Source: Plasmodiophora brassicae (lineage: Eukaryota > Endomyxa > Phytomyxea > Plasmodiophorida > Plasmodiophoridae). From it: a stretch of 64,000 nt of DNA. A program made the position numbers and the translations under genes. The notes under the pieces are model-generated. The model ran no database searches, was not told the origin of the DNA, and was given only the letters and a program-made list of their open reading frames with translations. Within the stretch, counting starts at the first letter, position 1. Each line of letters opens with the position of its first letter. The stretch lies in the NCBI GenBank assembly GCA_039704465.1, contig JASFAU010000003.1:992001-1056000 (forward strand), in the 5' to 3' direction. This document shows, in pieces, positions 7,959-44,635 of this stretch.

Positions 7959-8552
7959 CTACGATGCTGAACCTGGTGCTGTGGGCTTATTGAGGAACAT
8001 GTATGCGGCCACGCCCAAGGCCAGCACGACCGCAGCCGACTTGGATGCGAATAAGGCGGCCCCCGGCCCGCCATAGACCATGACCTTGTCCGCCGATGAC
8101 CCGAACACTGGCCGGATGAACTTGCCCTTGACGCGCTTGTACAAGCCGTAATAGCGTTCGTTCACCGGGTGCATAATGTGATGCCCGAGCGTCTTCCACA
8201 CGGATGCCAAGCGTTCGCTGGTCGACTTTGAGGACAGGGATCGCAGACCTTCCGTGGTGAACACATCGTTCTTTCGGGCGAGCGTGGACGCGACATATCC
8301 TCTGGCGTCACGCTGGGCGGCGTTCTTGTTCAGGAGGTACAACGCGGCTGCTACGGCGACACGTCGAGCGCCGAACGCCGATATCGCAGCCAGTATGCCA
8401 ACCACCTCGACCGTTTCGCGTGGGTGCTTCACGACGAGGTCCTGCGCATGGTCCATGAACCCTTCGGGACCACCACCGGCCCTGACGCCGGCGAACTGCA
8501 GCGCGAGGGCAGCAATGCTGCAGAGCGCTATAACAACGAACCTGTGCGGCAT
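7959..8552 (-). CDS. Orphan secretory/membrane protein, tandem paralogue A
   Basis: Single-exon ORF of 197 residues that I do not recognise. It starts MPHRFVVIALCSIAALALQ, which looks like a signal peptide. A second hydrophobic stretch lies at about residues 48-70, and a third near the C-terminus (AVVLALGVAAYMFL). It shares clear blocks with the neighbouring ORF at 8808-9389: KHPRE/KHPRA, FGARRVA/FGFRRVA, LNKNAAQRDA/LNKNAAERDA, SKSTSERLA/SKSNNERLA, NERYYGLYKRVK/NERYYRLYKHVK and DKVMVYG/DKAMVFG. The two are adjacent and on the same strand, so a tandem duplication is likely. It is convergent with the ABC transporter, 48 bp away. Function is unknown. Confidence 0.8.
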   Translation of the reverse strand: MPHRFVVIALCSIAALALQFAGVRAGGGPEGFMDHAQDLVVKHPRETVEVVGILAAISAFGARRVAVAAALYLLNKNAAQRDARGYVASTLARKNDVFTTEGLRSLSSKSTSERLASVWKTLGHHIMHPVNERYYGLYKRVKGKFIRPVFGSSADKVMVYGGPGAALFASKSAAVVLALGVAAYMFLNKPTAPGSAS

Positions 8553-8807
8553 GAGGACGACGACCCGGTCGCCTTATGGCCCTTCTGTCCGACCAGATCG
8601 AAGTGCGGCTCCGGTTCCGGCGAGAGTCACGAGTCACGACGAGCGTGGCTGAAACCTATTTTTAGGTAGTTCGCGGGACAGCGGGACATTGTGCCGCCGA
8701 CGTGGTGGATAGATATCGAGTTGGCGGTCAGGCAACCAACAGCCTCAGCTAATGAGTCCAGTCTGCTGGTGGACAGTCACCGAAAGGTATGTATTGGGGC
8801 GATTCGC

Positions 8808-9389
8808 CTAGGGCGTCGCGGTCTTGTTGGAGTTGCCGAGGTAGACGTAGGCGCCGACGGCCAAACCCGCTGCGGTAGCAGCCGTCTTCGACATGGCAAT
8901 GACGGAGGCGGGTGCTCCAAAGACCATGGCCTTGTCACTGTGGACCCCGAGAACCGGTTTGACGTGCGTGTCCTTGACGTGCTTGTACAGTCGATAGTAC
9001 CGTTCGTTCAATGGACGCAGAACGCGATGACGGATCGTGTTCTTCGCGGCAGCCAGACGCTCGTTGTTCGACTTCGACGCCAGCGAGTGCATGCCATTCA
9101 TCGTGAACAGGTCTTCGGTCGGGTCGAGCGCGGGGTGTTCGCCTGCACCGTTGGCGTCTCGCTCGGCCGCGTTCTTGTTCAGGTAGTACAACGTCGATGC
9201 CGTCGCGACACGGCGGAAGCCGAACAGGGACGTTGCCGCCAGCGCCATAATCGCCTCGGCCGCCGCACGCGGATGCTTCTGGACCAGCTCCTGCGCGCTC
9301 GCCATGAACGTGTCGTTATCCGAGGCGGCAGCGACCGCGATCAGCGCCGCGCTGCAAACCGCAAGGACCAGGGCCGCGCGATGCACCAT
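8808..9389 (-). CDS. Orphan secretory/membrane protein, tandem paralogue B
   Basis: Single-exon ORF of 193 residues, paralogous to the ORF at 7959-8552. It starts MVHRAALVLAVCSAALIAVA, a likely signal peptide ending near AAA/SDN. It has a mid hydrophobic segment (AIMALAATSLFGF) and a C-terminal one (AATAAGLAVGAYVYL) followed by a short polar tail. The conserved charged core, with LNKNAAERDA, SLASKSNNERLA and NERYYRLYKHVK, lies between the hydrophobic segments. The alternation of conserved polar motif and variable hydrophobic ends suggests a constrained protein rather than chance ORFs. I cannot match the core to any family I know. Confidence 0.8.
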   Translation of the reverse strand: MVHRAALVLAVCSAALIAVAAASDNDTFMASAQELVQKHPRAAAEAIMALAATSLFGFRRVATASTLYYLNKNAAERDANGAGEHPALDPTEDLFTMNGMHSLASKSNNERLAAAKNTIRHRVLRPLNERYYRLYKHVKDTHVKPVLGVHSDKAMVFGAPASVIAMSKTAATAAGLAVGAYVYLGNSNKTATP

Positions 9390-9634
9390 GATGACGAGGA
9401 CGATGACGACCCTTTGCGCTCGTGAACCTGAATGCAGAAAAAGTCCGCCGCTGCGTTGCTGCCGTGAACGAACCCGACGACGGGCGGCCTGATGCTATTT
9501 CCGGAACCGCCAACGCAGTTAACGCCTTTTTCTTCGTGGACGAATCGACGGCGGAGATAACGCGACCTGCTACTAAACCGCATGGGAGGGGGGCAGGCCG
9601 CTATAGACCATACTGGATGCGACGTGTCTATTGA

Positions 9635-30957: not shown

Positions 30958-33900
30958 TTACTTGGGCGACATCAGTGATGACGACGTGCTCTCAACTGGG
31001 AGGAGCGTCGTACCGGCCATGTCCAGGATAGCGTGAATGATGTCACGAGTTTGCTGATTGGCCGACGTCCTTGTCGGCGCAGTCGTCATGCCCTGTGCGG
31101 CATCGTCGCGGATGTCAAGCATGTCAGCATGCTTGTCTCGAGTAAACAGTCGCGGCAGGGTCGACGATAGGCGGTTCTTCTTCTTCTTCACGGTTGACCG
31201 GTCTAAGGTGCCGCCCAGCGGTGCGTTCGCGCTTGGACGCATTGTGCCAGTGTCGGAGCGGACCTTGAACACCAGACAGAGCGCCCGAGCGGCACGACGG
31301 CGCTCTGCGTCCAAAGACATCAGGCGTGACCCCGGTAGCGACAAACGGATTCTGCAGACTACCTTGCCGGGAGGAGAACGTATCGGCGACGCCTGGATAC
31401 TCAGCGACGAGCGCGCTGACTAACTTCTTGCTCGCTTCACTGTCATCACCCAGCTCGCGCGCGTACATGAGGTAATCGTACGCCGTGGCCACGTCTCGTT
31501 CGACATGTCGCCCGGCCAGGAACAATGACGCTAGCCACCGCGCCGCCTGCTTCGACCCACTCCTGCACGCCCGACGATACCATTTCAGAGCACCTGGAGC
31601 ACACCGTATTCTTAGCGTTGACCTGTAACCAACATCAACAACGAATACCTTGTGCATTGGATCGCCCCGCAAAGCCTGCATCGATAGCATTGGCCAGGTA
31701 CAGCATGGCGTCAACGTTTCCGGAGGACGCTGCCGCCTTGTACTGCTTCAGGGCAGCTTCGACATCGCCGTCAATAACCAGGCTGTGCTCCGCGGCCGAC
31801 ATCGCAGTTACAGACACGTGATCGCCATGCTCTACCACAGGCATCAGATACAACGTGCAAGCTGACAGCGCGGATCATACGCGTGCTCTGAGACCCGACA
31901 AAACGAGTCTCTACTGCATCATGGTTGCCCGAACCCAGCGACCGCTTGTACCAGAACACGGACCAGGGCGATGTCGATGATGTCGATGGCAGGCCAACAC
32001 GATCGCCGATTCCGTATAACTGCCCCAGGAGCTGCTGAGCCTGGCTACAACCAGATTTGAAGGAAGCGACTTGTAACAGGTGCACGGCCAGGCAGGCATC
32101 AGGAATGGCACTGCCGGACAGATGTTGAACTGCCTGAACAACAGCACAGCGCCGTCCATGAAGGCGCTGGCATGGGCGGCGACGAGGTTTCATATACCCG
32201 ATCATGCCCAGGACGGTCTGAGTAACCCCGCGAAGAGAGTGCACGTCGCAACCGCCGGCAAGCGCGCTGGCCATCTCGTGAACAACGGTCACGACTGCGA
32301 ACCGGCATTCCTCCAGGTGGTCGGCGAAGACTTCGCTGAGCACCTTGTCCTGGCCAACAAGTTCGCGCATGATGGAGGCGGCCAGTGATCGCCCACGGGC
32401 ATCGCCGAGACAGGCGGCCCGACTTGACCACTGAAGCGCAACGAACAACGGCGACGACGCAGCAAAGGTCGGCTGGCGTTTCGCGATCTCGACATAGACA
32501 GAGGCGAGCAGAACCATGGCATTGGCGTCGTCCGTGGCGTCCGCTGACGTTTCCAGCACTCGGCGAGCCGCGACCCAGTCCTGGTCGACACCCCGTGTTC
32601 CCGTCAAGTGGCACAGGGCCAAATCCAGGCAGGCGGGCGCATACACCTGGTCAGCTGCAATTCGCAGGAGAGCGGGATCATCATGTTGCAGTCGCTTCCA
32701 GAGCAGGTACTGCGCTTTCGGGTCGCCCAACGATGCCGCCTTCTCAAGCAGGACCGGCGCACGTCGGTCGTCAGGTCGGCGTTCGGCAATGGCAACCATT
32801 GCCCACGACGCGTCATCGACAACGCCGACCACTTTGTCGACCGCGACCATTGCCCGATCCGACAATCGATCCTGCAGCCGTACGAACGCATCACGGCTGC
32901 CTTGTGCGATGGCCTGTTCGAGCCAGAACACCGAACGCGTCTCATCAGTCACAGCCGACGCCAGGCGCAGTTGCGCCTCGATCAGATGCGCCTTCGCCGC
33001 CTTGTCGTACCAGATCAACGCCCGGTCGGCGCTGGCAGCCGGAGCCCCGCCCGATCCAACTGAGATCAAGTCGCCAACCAGCAACTGTCAAAGAAGCCAG
33101 ATGGACCCCGTTAGAATGAGACGGTGTCGGGACCAAGGCTAGCAAACAGGTACCTGAGCGCGCGCGTGCCCCAAACGCGCTGCCTTCGTCGCCAGGTCGA
33201 ACGCGTCGGAAGGCGTGGACCGCGCCCGTTGGTACAGCACCTCGGCGTGGTCCTGCCCTCCTGCCAGGGACACTGCACCTGGGATGCCTTGCGCCAGGAG
33301 CATGGCGATCGCCAGCGGATGGTGCCCGTCAGCTGCTCGCCTGAGAAGCGCGATCGACTCGTCAGGCCCCCAGCAGTGTAAGCTCATCAGGAAGGCGGCA
33401 TGACTATCGCCTGCATCGCACGCCTCCTGCAGAAGCGACATGGCCCGCGCCTTGCACGGCCGACGACCGTCGCCCACAGGGTAGAGATGCATGAGCGCTA
33501 AGGCGGTCAGCGCCCTGCGAACACCCGCCCTGGCACTCTTGCGCAGCCAGCGGCGCGCTTGACCCCAGGAACCCGCCCGAACCATCCGGAACGCCAGCGT
33601 CAACTGTGCATCGCCGTCGCCAGCCTTGGCCGCAGACACGATGCTGTCGTCGTCACCGACGTCGTTGTCGCCCAAGCACTCATTGTCGACCGCAGCGTTG
33701 GCCTCCTGGTCTGACGGGCCGGGGCAATCGCGACGAGCAGCCCGACGTAGCCAGATGTCCCGATGAGGATGATGCTGGCACGTCGCCAGCTCATGCTGGG
33801 CGTCCGGGTCACCTCCATCGGCAGCCCGTTCAATCCACGAATACCACGTCTGCGCGTCTTTCTGCTCCTGCAGCGCCTGATGGGCGAACCACAGCTGCGC

Positions 33901-36363
33901 CTTGGGGACACCGGCGTCGGCCGCCACCTGCATCCAGTGCAGGCGATCGAGTCGCGTCTCCTGGGCCATGCCGATCTCGACCATCGCCTCCAGGCTACCA
34001 GCACGCGCCGCCGACTCCCAGAACGTGTCCGCCTTCGCAGGTGCAGGCGCGCGCCGGGCCTGCTCCAGCAGGGCATCGCCGGATCCGAGCGAAGACGCCC
34101 GCTCCAACCACCTGGCTTGCTCGTCGTCGTCGTCCGTCAATCCAGCCAACAGGAACGCCGCCTCTGCACAGCCGGCGTTCGCGCCCGCACGTAACCATCG
34201 CCTAGCCTCGTCCAGGTCAACGTCGACGTACAGACCGATACGGTGCAGGCGTGCCAGTTCGATCTGGGCCGGCCAATGCCCCGCCAGGGCTGCTTGTCGC
34301 AGGAAGTACAGCGCCTGGTTGACGTCGCCAGGGGGTTCCGCCACGAACCGCGATCCATCGACAACGCCTCGGTGGAACAGCACCAGCTCGGCCAGCATGA
34401 ACTGGCATTCCGACGATCCGTCCTCGGCGCCCGTGATCAGGAACGGGCGCGCCAGCTGCCCTTGCCCCCGGTGCTGGTAGTACTGGGCCAATTCGATGGT
34501 CGCCGTAATGCAGCGATCCGAGGCAGCTTCGCGCAGGTGCTCGACCCGTTGCCTGTCCTGGTCATCCCGGCCGGCGTGTTCCGCCGACGGATTCTGCAGG
34601 TGACGTGCCAGGTCAGCTTGAGCGGACACGTCGCCACGTCCGGCAGCCTTTCGCAGCAGGGCACGACCTTCGTCAGCTGTCGTGTCGTCGTCCAGCAATA
34701 GACGACCGAGGCGGCTTTGCGCCTGGAGATGACCCTTGCCGGCTGCCAGTCGTAACCAGCGCGTTGCCGTTGCCAGGTCGGGCAGGAGCTCCGGAGGACG
34801 TCCTTCCTGATACGCGATCCCGAGCAGGAACTGGGCGTCCGTGTCTGACTGAGCGCTCGCCTTCTTGTACCATTGCAGGGCTTGCCGGATATCACGACTG
34901 CCGTCGGCGCCGGACCCTTGCTCGTAGCATTGCCCTAGAGCCGTCTGCGCCGGCGCCAGGTCATGGAGCTGGGCAGCGCGTCGTAACCACTGCAGCGACT
35001 GTCCTTGGTCCAGGCCTCGAATCAGCTCGGCAGTCAGCAGCATGGCAGGTGGCAGGCCGCACTCTGCGGCCTGCATTGCATATCGGATGGCATCGTCCAT
35101 CTGGCCCGCGTCGCCACTCGACGCCAGCATTCGTGCAAGAACGAGTAGGGCCTCTGGATCGCACCGGGCGCAATCAGCTTGCGCCGCTTTATCCAGCCAG
35201 GTCTTCGCATCGTGGTCGCGCCCGCGCCGATGGTACTCCAGCCCCAGACGAGTTTGTGCCTCGAAATGGCCTGCGTCAGCCGCTGCTTGCAGAAGGTCGA
35301 TTGCGGAATCTGATGGCAGAAGTAGCAATCCCAACTGGCACTGTGCGTGGATACGTTCGTCGTTGTCCTCAGTCAGATCAATGACGACGCGGAACAAGGA
35401 TTTGGCGCGTTCGGGTGACGACTTTACAATGGTCGTGGCGATCTGGAAAATCGCAGCAGAGTGGCGTTGCTCAGCGGCGCGTTCCAGCCAGTGCATGGCT
35501 TGGACATTGCGACCTGATTGCAGGCATAGTGATCCCAGTAGGGTCTGCGCCTCCGCAACGTTCTGCTTAGCGCATGCTTCTAGCCAGGCTTTAGCATCGT
35601 CGTCTCGATCGTCTCTCAGCGCCAGCTTGGCGACGAACAGTTGTGATAGCGCATGGCCTTGCTCAGCTAAATTTGTGAGCAGACCGCGACCTTCGGCAAC
35701 CGCGTCAGCATTGTCAGCCCCGAATTCAACCAGAAACCTGCCCAGTGCGAACGTTCCGTCATGGTCGCCCGCCTTTCTAAACATTGTTTCGAGGGTATGG
35801 AACGCGTGCCGATTGCTAGGGTGACGTGACAGCTGGGCGTAAACGCGAGCGAGGTCTGTCCAGGCGGGGGTCAGTCCGCTCTGCACGGCTAGGGCGAAGT
35901 ATTCGGCCGCCGCCATCAGGTTTGGTTGGGAAAGGCCCAGGCCCACTTCCAGCAACACACCGAGTTGACGAGCGGCCTCTGATGACCCTTCCAGAGCGGC
36001 GCACGCGTAACAAATGCAGGACGTACGGTCGCCACCGTCGTCTCGTATACGTTGCAGGGCAAGCAATTCGGTAACGGAGACAACAACACAATTGTCGTTG
36101 AACATGATGGGAGGATCCTGCGTACAGAGAAGCGCCGCGCCGCCGCCCGTCGAAAGCAAACTATCTCGCTGGTCGGCGGTCAGCTTGGTCGACTGCCGGA
36201 TGAAATCATCTAGGTGCGACCGGCCAACGTCGACATCCTGCCTGCAGGATCGACAGACTTCGGACCACGATTCGCTGCTGGGAACATGGCCAGGCGCCGT
36301 GTCCTTTGCACCTGGTAGCAGGTCCCGTGCATCGGTGCTGATAACGCCACCTGGATCGCTCAT
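30958..36363 (-). CDS. Large Sel1-like-repeat protein
   Basis: Starts MSDPGGVISTDARD (36363). Exon 1 is 36363-33154, a 69-bp intron lies at 33085-33153, and at least three more short introns follow near 31880, 31620 and 31350. The total is about 1,730 residues. The body is built of Sel1-type repeats (helix pairs with A-x2-G-x-x-x-A-Q-x2-L-G): for example AQTALGQCYEQGSG, AQFLLGIAYQEGR, AQSRLGRLLLDDD and AAFLMSLHCW. Sel1 repeats are solenoid scaffolds for protein binding, as in ERAD and signalling adaptors. The last exon is a basic tail (STVKKKKNRLSSTLPRL) with no repeats. No signal peptide or kinase domain is visible. Bases 32361-35234 are one arm of an inverted duplication whose other arm is at 37025-39898. 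Confidence 0.82.
32361..35234 (-). repeat. Inverted duplication, left arm (2,874 bp)
   Basis: Matches 37025-39898 in reverse complement. The match begins inward at the sequence for HRRGRDHDAK and ends outward at SIMRE. Both arms are exactly 2,874 bp by my coordinates, so no net indel has accumulated. The arm carries most of exon 1, the whole 69-bp intron and part of exon 2 of the Sel1 gene. Confidence 0.9.
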
Positions 36364-37014
36364 TGAAGATTATAGACGCTGGAGTCCGCCGGGGCCGCCC
36401 GCGACCCGCAGACACACCAGGGGGCGCCCCGGCAGATATCGCTGTGACGGTGGGGCCCAACGACGACGTCAACGCGTCGACACAGTGTAACACTACATGC
36501 CCTCACGTTTTTGGAGCAGGCGCTGCCAGTGAGCTGCAACGCGGAGGCCGGCCCATCCAGGATATCGCGTTTCCAACGGTATGCTGACCCAGCGCAGGTG
36601 CCATAGTCGTGGGAGTTGACTGTTGGGGAAGGTTTCGCGTGGCAACAAAGCGAGCTTGACATGAGGTGAGTGTGAACGAACTGGTATGCGTACCGCGCTG
36701 TTGTGTTTATTACCTGCTGACGGTGGCAGCTAAACGCAAACACTGACGAGTAATCGACAACCATGCATGCAAAGCAGACCCGTCTGGGGGCATTCCTCTC
36801 GAATTCCTCCAGAGAAAGGTGCGTACCTAGTCTCCGCACCAGACATCCTCGAGTTGTGGTCTTGGACAGAGTGACTGTTGGAGCACACGCGACAGGCGCA
36901 CACCGAGTCTGAAGCCCGGACGTATGGTGTGATTGCGCAGCGACCGCGGAGGAATTCGAAAATGTGGCCTCAGACAGGTCAGCTTAGCGTGCTGGGTTGC
37001 TGATTATCCTCGTC
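36364..37014. promoter_or_regulatory. Spacer side of the inverted duplication; Sel1 gene promoter
   Basis: About 650 bp upstream of the Sel1 gene, inside the spacer (35235-37024) that separates the duplicated arms. No gene is recognisable. It should hold the promoter of the minus-strand Sel1 gene and, if the plus-strand copy is transcribed, a newly acquired promoter for that copy too. Confidence 0.4.
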
Positions 37015-39924
37015 ATGGTTCGTCACCATCGGCGCAGGCGCGACCACGATGCGAAGGCCTGGCTGGATAAAGCGGCGCAAGCTGATTGCGCCCGTTGCGA
37101 TCCAGAGGCTCTATTCACCCTTGCACGCAAGCTGGCGTCGGGTGGCGACGCGGGCCAGAAGGACGACGCCATCCGATATGCAATGCAGGCCGCAGAGTGC
37201 GGCCTGCCCCCTGCCATGTTGCTGACTGCCGAGCTGGTTCGAGGCCTGGACCAAGGACAGTCGCTGCAGTGGTTACGACGCGCTGCCCAGCTCCATGACC
37301 TGGCGCCGGCGCAGACGGCTCTAGGGCAATGCTACGAGCAAGGGTCCGGCGCCAACGGCAGTCGTGATATCCGGCAAGCCCTGCAATGGTACAAGAAGGC
37401 GAGCGCTCAGTCGGACACGGACGCCCAGTTCCTGCTCGGGGTCGCATATCAGGAAGGACGTCCTCCGGAGCTCCAGCCCGACCTGGCAACGGCAACGCGC
37501 TGGTTACGACTGGCGGCCGGCAAGGGTCATCTCCAGGCGCAAAGCCGCCTCGGTCGTCTATTGCTGGACGACGATGCGACAGCTGACGAAGGTCGTGCCC
37601 TGCTGCGAAAGGCTGCCGAACGTGGCGACGTGTCCGCTCAAGCTGACCTGGCACGTCACCTGCAGAATCCGTCGGCGGAACACGCCGGCCGGGATGACCA
37701 GGACAGGCAACGGGTCGAGCACCTGCGCGAAGCTGCCTCGAACCGTTGCATTACGGCGATCATCGAATTGGGCCAGCACTACCAGCACCGGGGGCAAGGG
37801 CAGCTGGCGCGCCCGTTCCTGATCACGGGCGCCGAGGATGGATCGTCGGAATGCCAGTTCATGCTGGCCGAGCTGGTGCTGTTCCACCGAGGCGTTGTCG
37901 ATGGATCGCGGTTCGTAGAGGAATCTCCTGGCGACGTCAACCAGGCGCTGTACTTCCTGCGACAAGCAGCCCTGGCGGGGCATTGGCCGGCCCAGATCGA
38001 ACTGGCACGCCTGCACCGTATCGGTCTGTACGTCGACGTTGACCTGGACGAGGCTAGGCGATGGTTACGTGCAGGCGCGAACGCCGGCTGTGCAGAGGCG
38101 GCGTTCCTGTTGGCTGGAATGACGGACGACGACGACGAGCAAGCCAGGTGGTTGGAGCGGGCGTCTTCGCTCGGATCCGGCGATGCCCTGCTGGAGCAGG
38201 CCCGGCGCGCGCCTGCGCCTGCGAAGGCGGACACGTTCTGGGAGTCGGCGGCGCGTGCTGGCAGCCTGGAGGCGATGGTCGAGATCGGCATGGCCCAGGA
38301 GACGCGACTCGATCGCCTGCACTGGATGCAGGTGGCGGCCGACGCCGGTGTCCCCAAGGCGCAGCTGTGGTTCGCCCATCAGGCGCTGCAGGAGCAGAAC
38401 GACGTGCAGACGTGGTCTTCGTGGATTGAACGGGCTGCCGATGGAGGTGACGCGGACGCCCAGCATGAGCTGGCGACGTGCCAGCATCATCCTCATCGGG
38501 ACGCCTGGCTGCGTCGGGCCGTCCGTCGCGATTGCCCCGGCCCGTCAGACCAGGAGGCCAACGCTGCGGTCGACAATGAGTGCTTGGGCGACAACGACGT
38601 CGGTGACGACGACAGCATCGTGTCTGCGGCCAAGGCTGGCGACGGCGATGCACAGTTGACGCTGGCGTTCCGGATGGTTCGGGCGGGTTCCTGGGGTCAA
38701 GCGCGCCTCTGGCTGCGCAAGAGTGCCAGGGCGGGTGTTCGCAGGGCGCTGACCGCCTTAGCGCTCATGCATCTCTACCCTGTGGGCGACGGTCGTCGGC
38801 CGTGCAAGGCGCGGGCCATGTCGCTTCTGCAGGAGGCGTGCGATGCAGGCGATAGTCATGCCGCCTTCCTGATGAGCTTACACTGCTGGGGGCCTGACGA
38901 GTCGATCGCGCTTCTCAGGCGAGCAGCTGACGGGCACCATCCGCTGGCGATCGCCATGCTCCTGGCGCAAGGCATCCCAGGTGCAGTGTCCCTGGCAGGA
39001 GGGCAGGACCACGCCGAGGTGCTGTACCAACGGGCGCGGTCCACGCCTTCCGACGCGTTCGACCTGGCGACGAAGGCAGCGCGTTTGGGGCACGCGCGCG
39101 CTCAGGTACCTGTTTGCTGGCCTTGGTCCCGACACCGTCTCATTCTAACGGGGTCCATCTGGCTTCTTTGACAGTTGCTGGTTGGCGACTTGATCTCAGT
39201 TGGGTCGGGCGGGGCTCCGGCTGCCAGCGCCGACCGCGCGTTGATCTGGTACGACAAGGCGGCGAAGGCGCATCTGATCGAGGCGCAACTGCGCCTGGCG
39301 TCGGCTGTGACTGATGAGACGCGTTCGGTGTTCTGGCTCGAACAGGCCATCGCACAAGGCAGCCGTGATGCGTTCGTACGGCTGCAGGATCGATTGTCGG
39401 ATCGGGCAATGGTCGCCGTCGACAAAGTGGTCGGCGTTGTCGATGACGCGTCGTGGGCAATGGTTGCCATTGCCGAACGCCGACCTGACGATCGACGTGC
39501 GCCGGCCCTGCTTGAGAAGGCGGCATCGTTGGGCGACCCGAAAGCGCAGTACCTGCTCTGGAAGCGACTGCAACACGATGATCCCGCTCTCCTGCGAAGT
39601 GCAGCTGACCAGGTGTATGCGCCCGCCTGCCTGGATTTGGCCCTGTGCCACTTGACGGGAACGAGGGGTGTCGACCAGGACTGGGTCGCGGCTCGCCGAG
39701 TGCTGGAAGCGTCAGCGGACGCCACGGACGACGCCGATGCCATGGTTCTGCTCGCCTCCGTCTATGTCGAGATCGCGAAACGCCAGCCATTCTGTGCTGC
39801 GTCGTCGCCGTTGTTCGTTGCGCTTCAGTGGTCAAATCGGGCCGCCTGTCTCGGCGATGCCCGAGGGCGGTCACTGGCCGCCTCCATCATGCGCGAACCC
39901 GTCGGCATAATACAAGAGCGGTGA
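37015..39924 (+). pseudogene. Truncated inverted copy of the Sel1-repeat gene
   Basis: Reads MVRHHRRRRDHDAK from an ATG at 37015 that lies just outside the duplicated arm. It follows the Sel1 protein for about 930 residues. The same 69-bp intron is kept (39106-39174), which rules out retroposition. The copy lacks the first 375 or so residues and everything after SIMREP, ending in an unrelated tail VGIIQER and a stop. By my count about 27 of roughly 700 residues differ from the source gene in exon 1, so identity is near 96 percent, and no frameshift or stop interrupts it. It may be an expressed truncated paralogue or a young pseudogene; the sequence alone does not decide. Confidence 0.75.
37025..39898 (+). 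repeat. Inverted duplication, right arm (2,874 bp)
   Basis: Partner of 32361-35234. Homology starts at accatcgg (37025) and stops within the codons for MREP (39898), where the two flanks diverge completely. No target-site duplication, transposase or terminal motif was recognised at either edge. Confidence 0.9.
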
Positions 39925-40138
39925 CCGCTCTAGTCGGATCGCGCCGCACTGCAAGTTCCCTGCACAAAGGGTATTGGCCGGCTCTGCCAGGCCGGGGAAG
40001 CTGGCGCTCTGCAAGCTGAAGTTACGGTCCTCGGACCCGATGCCGAGGCGCTTGCGAAACCCCAATAACGTAAAACTAACTGTGAGGCTGACCGGTATGC
40101 GACACAATAAATAGTGTTATAGAATGAAAAGGCCAGGT

Positions 40139-43017: not shown

Positions 43018-44215
43018 TTACAGCGTATCAATCAGTTCAGCAAGCCACTGCTCTGGAACGGTAGGACGGCCGATGCCGAGGAAAACCAACAGGGACCACG
43101 CGTCGCGAGTCTCCAGGCGGGCAGCGCCCAGTCGGGACTTCATCCATTCGATATCGCCCCACACGACTGACTGTCCATGGGAACCACGCTTGCAGCCCAT
43201 CATCAACGTTTCGTCGGCGATATCAGGAAGGTGGACTTGGAACACAACCCGGTCCATCTGACCGCCGATCGATTCCGTCGCACATTCCACGCGAACCTCG
43301 TCGTCGTAATCGGCACCCGGCAGCGAGAAGCAACAGATTTCACACATGGCGTTGTTCGCGTACCACAGTGTCAGGCGGCTGTCGAATTGGACGATCGAGA
43401 ACAGGAACTCGGCCGTCATCCGGAACGTTTCCTGAGCCATGATGATGTCGCCCGCATCATCGACAACACCGAAACGCGACCTGATAGACGATGCGATGGC
43501 GAAGATGAACTCGCTGTGGAACGGCGCGAGGGCGTGGCCAACGGCATCACCCGAAATACTCTCCGAGCGTACGGCACGCCAGGGATCATTGCAGATGTCC
43601 CCTGGTTCGCAGTCCAGAACGACATGACGAGATCCGCGCGGCAAGGGAGCACGATTCGTCTGAGGGGAGATGGCAACCTTCCAATTCACATCGTACTCGT
43701 TGCGAACAAACGCGACCGTCGGTTTCGCGATCTTCGCCATCAGATTCGCCCCAGGTTGACAGGTCTTCTTCTGTTTGTTCTGTGTGCGAACGTGTTAATA
43801 CTCGATTAGCCTTGTACTGGCCGTGGATAATTACCCGGCGATTCTCGAACCATTTCCGGACCTTGTCGACGTCAAGCCCGATAGCAGTAGCCAAATCGAT
43901 TCTCGTCTTTCGGCTGGGGTGAGGATTCTCTGCAAAGGCTTCCTCGAGAACGCGATGCTGAAATGGGGTCAGATTATGCCGTTTGCGCTTGCCGATTGTC
44001 GCGGGGATTCTGGCAGTGGCCTTGTCAAGCGCGACAGGGCTCGTACCACTTGCGTAGCCAGTGTGCGAGTCGGTCCCGTCGTTCGCCAGTGAGGACGACG
44101 TCTTTGAGATCGACTCTGGGGACACCGGCACTCCACGGTTTGAACCCGACCGGACCGTCGCATCTTGACGTGGAACAACGCCTTCCTCGAAGACGAACTC
44201 CAGGGGCTTGCCCAT
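43018..44215 (-). CDS. Homeodomain protein with long C-terminal region
   Basis: Two exons, 44215-43697 and 43659-43018, joined across a 37-bp intron, give 386 residues. It starts MGKPLEFVFEEG. A homeodomain lies at about residues 70-130: KRKRHNLTPFQHRVLEEAF, NPHPSRKTRIDLATAIGL and VRKWFENRR. The recognition-helix core WFxNRR is intact; position 50 is glutamate, which is rare (usually Q, K, S, G or A). The C-terminal 214-residue exon (for example DIIMAQETFRMTAEFLF and RVVFQVHLPDIADETLM) is well formed but matches no family I know. An upstream untranslated or coding exon is possible. Likely a DNA-binding regulator. Confidence 0.8.
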
Positions 44216-44635
44216 ATTGGCAGCCGGGCCTGCTTGCTGATGGATAGATGCTGAGTGCTTGCACAAGACTTACAGCTGCAGCAGCATCGTTTAGGGGATT
44301 TCGTTCTTGCGCGGTCTTCGCAGTCGCACTGCACAGCCACGGACACCGCGGCATGCAGCGTGTATACGAAGCGCGCCCTAATGCTCATCAGCCACCCGTA
44401 AGGGTCCCCGTGAGCGCACTGCGTACAACCACGAGCTGGACATTGGCTTGGAGCGACCAGATCGCTGTCTGAGGACGAGCCGGGACTTTGGACATGTGCT
44501 GGCCGCGGCCTCAGGAGTTACAGGCAGGCCTCAGATATCCATGGAGGCCGCGTCCGGGTTTGAGGGCTGCTCGCGTCCCGTTGGCACCCAGTGCTGCCCC
44601 CAACTGGCGAGGCCATACCCTGTCATTCGGCGAGT
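44216..44635. promoter_or_regulatory. Divergent intergenic region, homeodomain / acidic protein gene
   Basis: About 420 bp between divergent starts. A donor-like GTAAGTC lies on the minus strand near 44268, suggesting a 5' intron of the homeodomain gene. Nothing else is recognised. Confidence 0.3.

What the first reader, a model, noticed from the sequence alone, without database searches (positions are those of the whole stretch)
32361..39898. Perfectly co-linear 2,874-bp inverted duplication around a Sel1-repeat gene
The minus-strand Sel1 gene segment 32361-35234 reappears as its reverse complement at 37025-39898, with a 1,790-bp spacer. Both arms are the same length, the intron is kept, and the edges are sharp. 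Such palindrome-like structures are unstable and usually recent, or kept by selection or conversion. They can also arise from assembly errors, although about 4 percent amino-acid divergence in exon 1 argues against a simple artefact.
Basis: seen in the sequence. Interest (0 to 1): 0.75.

Follow-up and report, generated by a model that had tools for sequence, protein, structure and literature searches.

The report
Inverted partial copy of Sel1 gene
In what appears to be the genome of the clubroot organism Plasmodiophora brassicae, the middle part of a large Sel1-repeat gene has been copied in reverse orientation just upstream of itself; the copy looks real and is still an open reading frame, but it is an ordinary kind of gene duplication.

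Summary
Window 32353-35234 (-) and 37025-39906 (+) are 2,882-bp inverted arms, 97.4% identical, 74 substitutions, no indel, 1,790-bp spacer. The window lies in a 25.3-Mb, 21-contig assembly; its Sel1 gene matches a Plasmodiophora brassicae protein. The arm occurs only twice there. Arm A is the interior of a 1,724-aa Sel1-repeat gene. Copy B lacks both ends but keeps the intron and a 946-aa open frame, with ATG and stop supplied by non-homologous flanks. The differences look like coding evolution (dS 0.050, dN 0.018), not sequencing error. They are dense at both arm ends and nearly absent in one interior stretch, suggesting partial arm-to-arm gene conversion. A and B differ at 35 of 937 residues, arm A and the public protein (probably another assembly) at 3 of 937, so the duplication is not very recent. 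Best reading: a genuine DNA-level inverted partial gene duplication giving a divergent truncated paralogue, touched by conversion. Such inverted pairs are known. Other isolates, reads and expression could not be tested.

The parts
30961..36363 (-). Full Sel1-repeat gene A (1,724-aa protein, matches P0001), start codon at 36363
   Evidence: tblastn of P0001 on the window; Pfam Sel1 PF08238 hits
32353..35234 (-). Arm A of the inverted repeat: interior of gene A (about residues 377-1314)
35235..37024 (.). Spacer, 1,790 bp, single copy: 5' coding part of gene A (35235-36363) plus 36364-37024
37025..39906 (+). Arm B: partial copy of gene A, 97.4% identical, no indel
37015..39924 (+). Open two-exon frame of copy B, 946 aa: ATG at 37015 (10 bp outside the arm), exon 1 to 39105, exon 2 from 39175, stop TGA at 39922-39924 (outside the arm)
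   Evidence: Sel1 hits in both exons. Not shown to be expressed
39106..39174 (+). 69-bp GT-AG intron in copy B, same place as in gene A; one difference
33085..33153 (-). The corresponding 69-bp intron in gene A
   Evidence: arm offsets 2081-2149 converted to window coordinates
39944..40056 (+). Old copy (77-83% identical to the other listed copies) of a dispersed short repeat, about 40 bp outside the outer edge of copy B

Best explanation
A genuine inverted partial gene duplication. At the DNA level (the intron is kept), an interior 2.9-kb piece of a Sel1-repeat gene was copied in reverse orientation into the DNA 0.66 kb upstream of that gene's start codon. This gave a divergent paralogue, truncated at both ends, whose open frame begins and ends with a start and a stop codon supplied by the new flanks (the frame is shown; its use is inferred). 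Since then the two arms have diverged largely as coding sequence and have probably been partly homogenised by arm-to-arm gene conversion, in the interior more than at the edges (inferred from the spread of differences). The likeliest product is a shorter Sel1-type alpha-solenoid, or nothing (a decaying but so far open copy). The mechanism of origin, for example template switching during repair, is inferred only.
For: Inverted arms, no gaps, sharp edges. Two places only in the genome; spacer single-copy. Intron kept in both. 946-aa open frame with flank-supplied ATG and stop. dS 0.050, dN 0.018, ratio 0.36, Fisher p 3e-5 against equal rates; codon positions 20:19:34 plus one intron difference. 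Uneven differences: 29 of 74 in the outer 240 bp at the two ends together; 410 bp without a difference; in 4,000 permutations p 0.001 for the longest gap (0.007 with neighbouring changes moved as blocks), 0 (0.00025) for the edges, 0.00025 (0.027) for the variance over 12 bins. Synonymous differences alone: 13 of 35 in the edge bins (p 0.0045) and 0 of 35 at arm offsets 1680-2160 (p 0.003), bins chosen after seeing the data.
Against: With two sequences and no outgroup, regional differences in mutation rate or selection can mimic conversion. dN/dS of 0.36 does not by itself show constraint on copy B: a ratio of 0.5 (one arm fully constrained, the other neutral) is not rejected (p 0.13), and an open frame survives 37, 55 or 74 neutral changes in 22%, 11% or 5% of simulations. 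The A-P0001 comparison shows no homogenisation of A and B overall. No transcript, read-depth or second-isolate DNA was available. No separate protein for copy B appeared in the public protein set, though it may be hidden in the 90% cluster of P0001.
Confidence: 0.8

Rival explanations
1. Assembly artefact: a chimeric or fold-back read, or two haplotypes or strains joined head to head.
For: Inverted repeats are a classic artefact form (recalled). The reads behind this assembly could not be seen, and which assembly it is was not established.
Against: 74 substitutions with third-position excess and no indel do not look like a fold-back read. Sequence outside both arms is unrelated, unlike joined haplotypes. 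The arms lie about 1.02-1.03 Mb into a 1.9-Mb contig, not at its end. Resting spores are described as haploid (PMC4471660, passage seen).
Confidence: 0.07
2. Copy B is a plain pseudogene: no function, no conversion, only an open frame left by chance. (Same origin as in the best explanation.)
For: Both ends of the protein are missing. An open frame after 37 neutral changes is expected in about 22% of simulations, and a pairwise ratio of 0.5 is not rejected (p 0.13). No separate protein record found.
Against: No indel in 2,882 bp: with an assumed 1 indel per 10 substitutions, 37 substitutions would give 3.7 (P0 0.025; the ratio is an assumption). Divergence is uneven along the arms. A pairwise ratio of 0.6 is rejected at p 0.03.
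Confidence: 0.35
3. The inverted pair is a hairpin-RNA locus: read-through transcription across both arms would give a 2.9-kb double-stranded RNA that feeds RNA silencing of gene A.
For: The geometry allows it. The genome has two Piwi-domain (Argonaute) reading frames and four RNase III-domain hits. Schwelm et al. 2015 report argonautes and one protein with two RNase III domains, and say it is not known whether silencing occurs in plasmodiophorids (PMC4471660, passage seen).
Against: No transcript or small-RNA data; the spacer is 1.8 kb; coding-type divergence is not needed for a hairpin.
Confidence: 0.04
4. A once larger inverted duplication of the gene, cut back by a deletion near its centre that removed the 5' part of copy B (such deletions are known to stabilise palindromes; recalled).
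For: Copy B lacks the 5' part that would face the centre.
Against: No second copy of the 5' part was found in the genome (spacer single-copy); the outer edge needs a second break. A single inverted insertion is simpler.
Confidence: 0.2

Closest known systems
Long inverted repeats made of divergent or convergent paralogous gene pairs in Caenorhabditis (Zhao et al. 2007, PMC1803023; abstract and passages seen)
   Same: Kilobase inverted arms that contain coding sequence, a spacer, divergent gene orientation, and gene conversion proposed to hold the arms alike (2,207-bp arms at their F44E5.4 locus).
   Different: Theirs include intergenic DNA, are shared between species and reach 99.7-100% identity in C. 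elegans. Here the arms are an interior gene piece, 97.4% alike, seen in one genome, with a longer spacer (1,790 bp against 126 bp).
Sex-chromosome palindromes with arm-to-arm gene conversion (PMC3723533, PMC8981503; titles and abstract openings seen in the search listing)
   Same: Inverted arms that can exchange sequence.
   Different: Above 99% arm identity and on sex chromosomes; here identity is 97.4%. The excess of A/T in arm A facing G/C in arm B (37 against 27) is weak and cannot be polarised.
Sel1-like repeat proteins (Pfam PF08238)
   Same: Both copies encode Sel1 repeats. Besides C3, hits lie on eight other contigs of this genome, on six of them above the family cut-off.
   Different: Sel1 membership of the protein is ordinary; nothing seen here links the family to inverted duplication.

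Membership tests
Sel1-repeat protein (PF08238) | Profile match above the curated cut-off of 30.7 bits | tested here: met
   Gene A exon 1 112.6 bits, second exon frame 46.3; copy B exon 1 96.1, exon 2 38.8
Inverted segmental (partial gene) duplication | Two inverted copies of high identity with unrelated sequence outside | tested here: met
Inverted segmental (partial gene) duplication | DNA-level, not retroposed: intron kept | tested here: met
   69-bp GT-AG intron in both arms
Palindrome maintained by gene conversion | Arms more alike within a genome than orthologous arms between genomes | not testable with these tools
   No DNA from a second isolate or related species was reached. The one protein comparison points the other way: A against P0001 3 of 937, A against B 35 of 937
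Palindrome maintained by gene conversion | Patchy divergence with homogenised tracts | tested here: inconclusive
   Significant patchiness, but selection or mutation heterogeneity cannot be excluded with two sequences
Functional paralogue | Intact frame with start, splice sites and stop | tested here: met
   946-aa frame
Functional paralogue | Purifying selection on copy B itself | tested here: inconclusive
   Pairwise ratio 0.36; 0.5 not rejected (p 0.13), 0.6 rejected at p 0.03
Functional paralogue | Expression | not testable with these tools
   No transcript data

The most novel reading that the evidence does not exclude
The inverted pair is a maintained two-gene unit: a truncated Sel1 solenoid with a newly captured start codon shares a divergent promoter with its parent, and arm-to-arm conversion keeps the interior of both proteins alike while their ends diverge. 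In a stronger form, read-through RNA folds into a hairpin that tunes the parent through the organism's Argonautes.
Probability: 0.12. Interest if true: 0.5.

Novelty: new member of a known kind. Interest (0 to 1): 0.3.

Why it matters
If the conversion reading holds, this is a small natural test case of arm-to-arm conversion in a rhizarian; whether others are in print I cannot say, since none of my paper searches asked that directly. The intact frame with flank-supplied start and stop is a tidy example of how a partial duplication can make a new gene. Otherwise it is an ordinary segmental duplication of a repeat-protein gene.

Tried and rejected
Dispersed repeat or transposon as the source of the arms: rejected, two places only. 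Retroposition: rejected, intron kept. Homology-driven origin through the short dispersed repeat next to copy B: not supported. That repeat (about 310 bp in its long form, TAAAC-rich 3' tail; 44 rows, where 40 of 116 candidates were scored, about half of the rows covering only part of it) lies at 39944-40056, about 40 bp outside copy B, and the 600 bp outside arm A show no match to the 600 bp that hold it. I found no tRNA or Rfam relation: ARAGORN 0 genes in the 6 loci scanned; in the 4 loci given to Rfam the only two rows, both below threshold, lie in L042 at 886-951, outside the element. Direct repeats between the last 40 bp before copy B and the stretch from 12 bp before to 30 bp after its outer edge: none of 5 bp or more. 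Deamination-type bias: transitions 54, transversions 20, roughly symmetric between arms. Closer relatives: P0001 is the only near-identical public protein; the others listed have 22-33% identity (29 others) and 23-40% (120 of 132 hits listed; only candidates of 0.55 to 1.75 times the query length are scored, so P0001 itself is out of range there). Baseline for how common such duplications are: not obtained. Two shorter neighbouring stretches, 6.5 and 7.0 kb, were single-copy. The telomere-to-telomere genome paper is not held.
Full report
What is there. The window contains one large inverted repeat: 32353-35234 and 37025-39906, 2,882 bp each, 97.43% identical, 74 substitutions, no gap, separated by 1,790 bp. 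Beyond the edges no similarity is found.

Where it is. The window is G000:C3:992001-1056000 of a 25,344,181-bp, 21-contig assembly. The gene on the minus strand matches P0001, a 1,724-aa protein whose name line gives Plasmodiophora brassicae, at 100% over the 1,073 residues queried. Stjelja et al. 2019 (PMC6823432; abstract, Methods and one Results section read) describe 20 nuclear contigs plus one mitochondrial contig, 25.1 Mb, for strain e3. The contig count fits, but the total length differs, P0001's longest contig (1,875,601) is not C3 (1,898,503), and P0001 differs from the window at three residues within the arm. So P0001 and the window probably come from different assemblies. A telomere-to-telomere assembly (Javed et al. 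2024) appears in the reference lists of two papers of which I saw passages, but that paper is not held. Which assembly the window belongs to is therefore not established.

Anatomy. Gene A starts at 36363 on the minus strand and ends near 30961. Arm A is its interior, about residues 377-1314. Copy B therefore lacks about the first 375 and the last 410 residues. The spacer holds gene A's own 5' coding part (1,129 bp) and a further 661 bp, and is single-copy. Both arms carry the same 69-bp GT-AG intron with one difference, so the copy was made from DNA. Copy B has an open two-exon frame of 946 aa. Its ATG at 37015 lies 10 bp outside the arm and its TGA at 39922-39924 about 16 bp outside, so both were supplied by the new flanks. 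Both copies score as Sel1-repeat proteins.

Artefact or real. The differences between arms behave like coding evolution: codon positions 20:19:34, dS 0.050, dN 0.018, ratio 0.36, no indel. A fold-back read would not give this, and joined haplotypes would not stop at sharp edges inside a gene. Resting spores are described as haploid (PMC4471660, passage). I judge the structure real, with the caveat that no reads could be inspected.

Age. A and B differ at 35 of 937 residues; A and P0001 differ at 3 of 937. If P0001 is from another isolate, the duplication is older than the split of those isolates, and copy B should be found in others. A search with copy-B exon 1 returned no near-identical separate protein: the best of the 120 listed hits (of 132) has 28% identity. 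Copy B might be folded into P0001's 90% cluster (6 members), so this is not evidence of absence.

Conversion. The 74 differences are not evenly spread: 29 lie in the outer 240 bp at the two ends together, and one interior stretch of 410 bp is identical. Against 4,000 position-weighted permutations the longest gap has p 0.001 (0.007 when neighbouring changes move as blocks), the edge excess 0 of 4,000 (0.00025 as blocks), the emptiest 600-bp stretch 0 of 4,000 (0.006 as blocks), and the variance over bins 0.00025 (0.027 as blocks). Synonymous differences alone show the same: 13 of 35 in the two edge bins (p 0.0045) and 0 of 35 in offsets 1680-2160 (p 0.003); those bins were chosen after seeing the data. 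This fits partial arm-to-arm conversion that reaches the edges less often. Uneven mutation or constraint remains possible.

Function of copy B. The open frame is suggestive but not proof: 37, 55 or 74 neutral changes leave it open in 22%, 11% or 5% of simulations; a pairwise ratio of 0.5, expected if A were fully constrained and B neutral, is not rejected (p 0.13), 0.6 is (p 0.03). Absence of indels argues for constraint or conversion, using an assumed indel rate. The likeliest product is a shorter Sel1 solenoid, a protein-protein interaction scaffold by general knowledge of the family (recalled); expression is untested.

Hairpin RNA. The genome has two Piwi-domain reading frames and four RNase III hits, and an RNA read through both arms could fold back. 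Nothing else supports this; I keep it as a minor rival.

Comparison with known cases. Inverted paralogous gene pairs with proposed conversion are described in Caenorhabditis (PMC1803023, abstract and passages), and sex-chromosome palindromes are a better-known case (listing only). This case resembles them but is less homogenised, and the defining comparison between genomes could not be made. One paper in the library holds both 'Plasmodiophora brassicae' and 'Sel1' as whole words, and by title and abstract opening it is about Arabidopsis proteins; that is the only search I aimed at this gene.

Verdict. It is a new member of a known kind, of modest interest.

Noticed in passing
window 39944-40056; L014-L022, L024-L053: Dispersed short repeat, about 310 bp in its long form with a TAAAC-rich 3' tail and many partial copies; some copies 98-100% identical, so perhaps recently active. 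No tRNA (6 loci) or Rfam (4 loci) relation found.
   Followed up: partly
G000:C12:616732-617637 and 619727-620635 (L054, L055): Two Argonaute (Piwi-domain) reading frames about 3 kb apart on the same strand.
   Followed up: no
P0001: The public name line calls this protein 'unnamed protein product (mitochondrion)', although the gene lies on a 1.9-Mb contig here; probably a database label error.
   Followed up: no
L042:886-951: Below-threshold Rfam match to miRNA family mir-3817 (43.8 bits, cut-off 90), most likely chance.
   Followed up: no
window 8071-8460 and 8917-9309: A direct duplicate of about 390 bp at 68.5% identity; the overlapping frame 8670-9422 has no Pfam match.
   Followed up: no
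window 43589-44269 (-): Homeodomain protein (PF00046, 57.8 bits).
   Followed up: no
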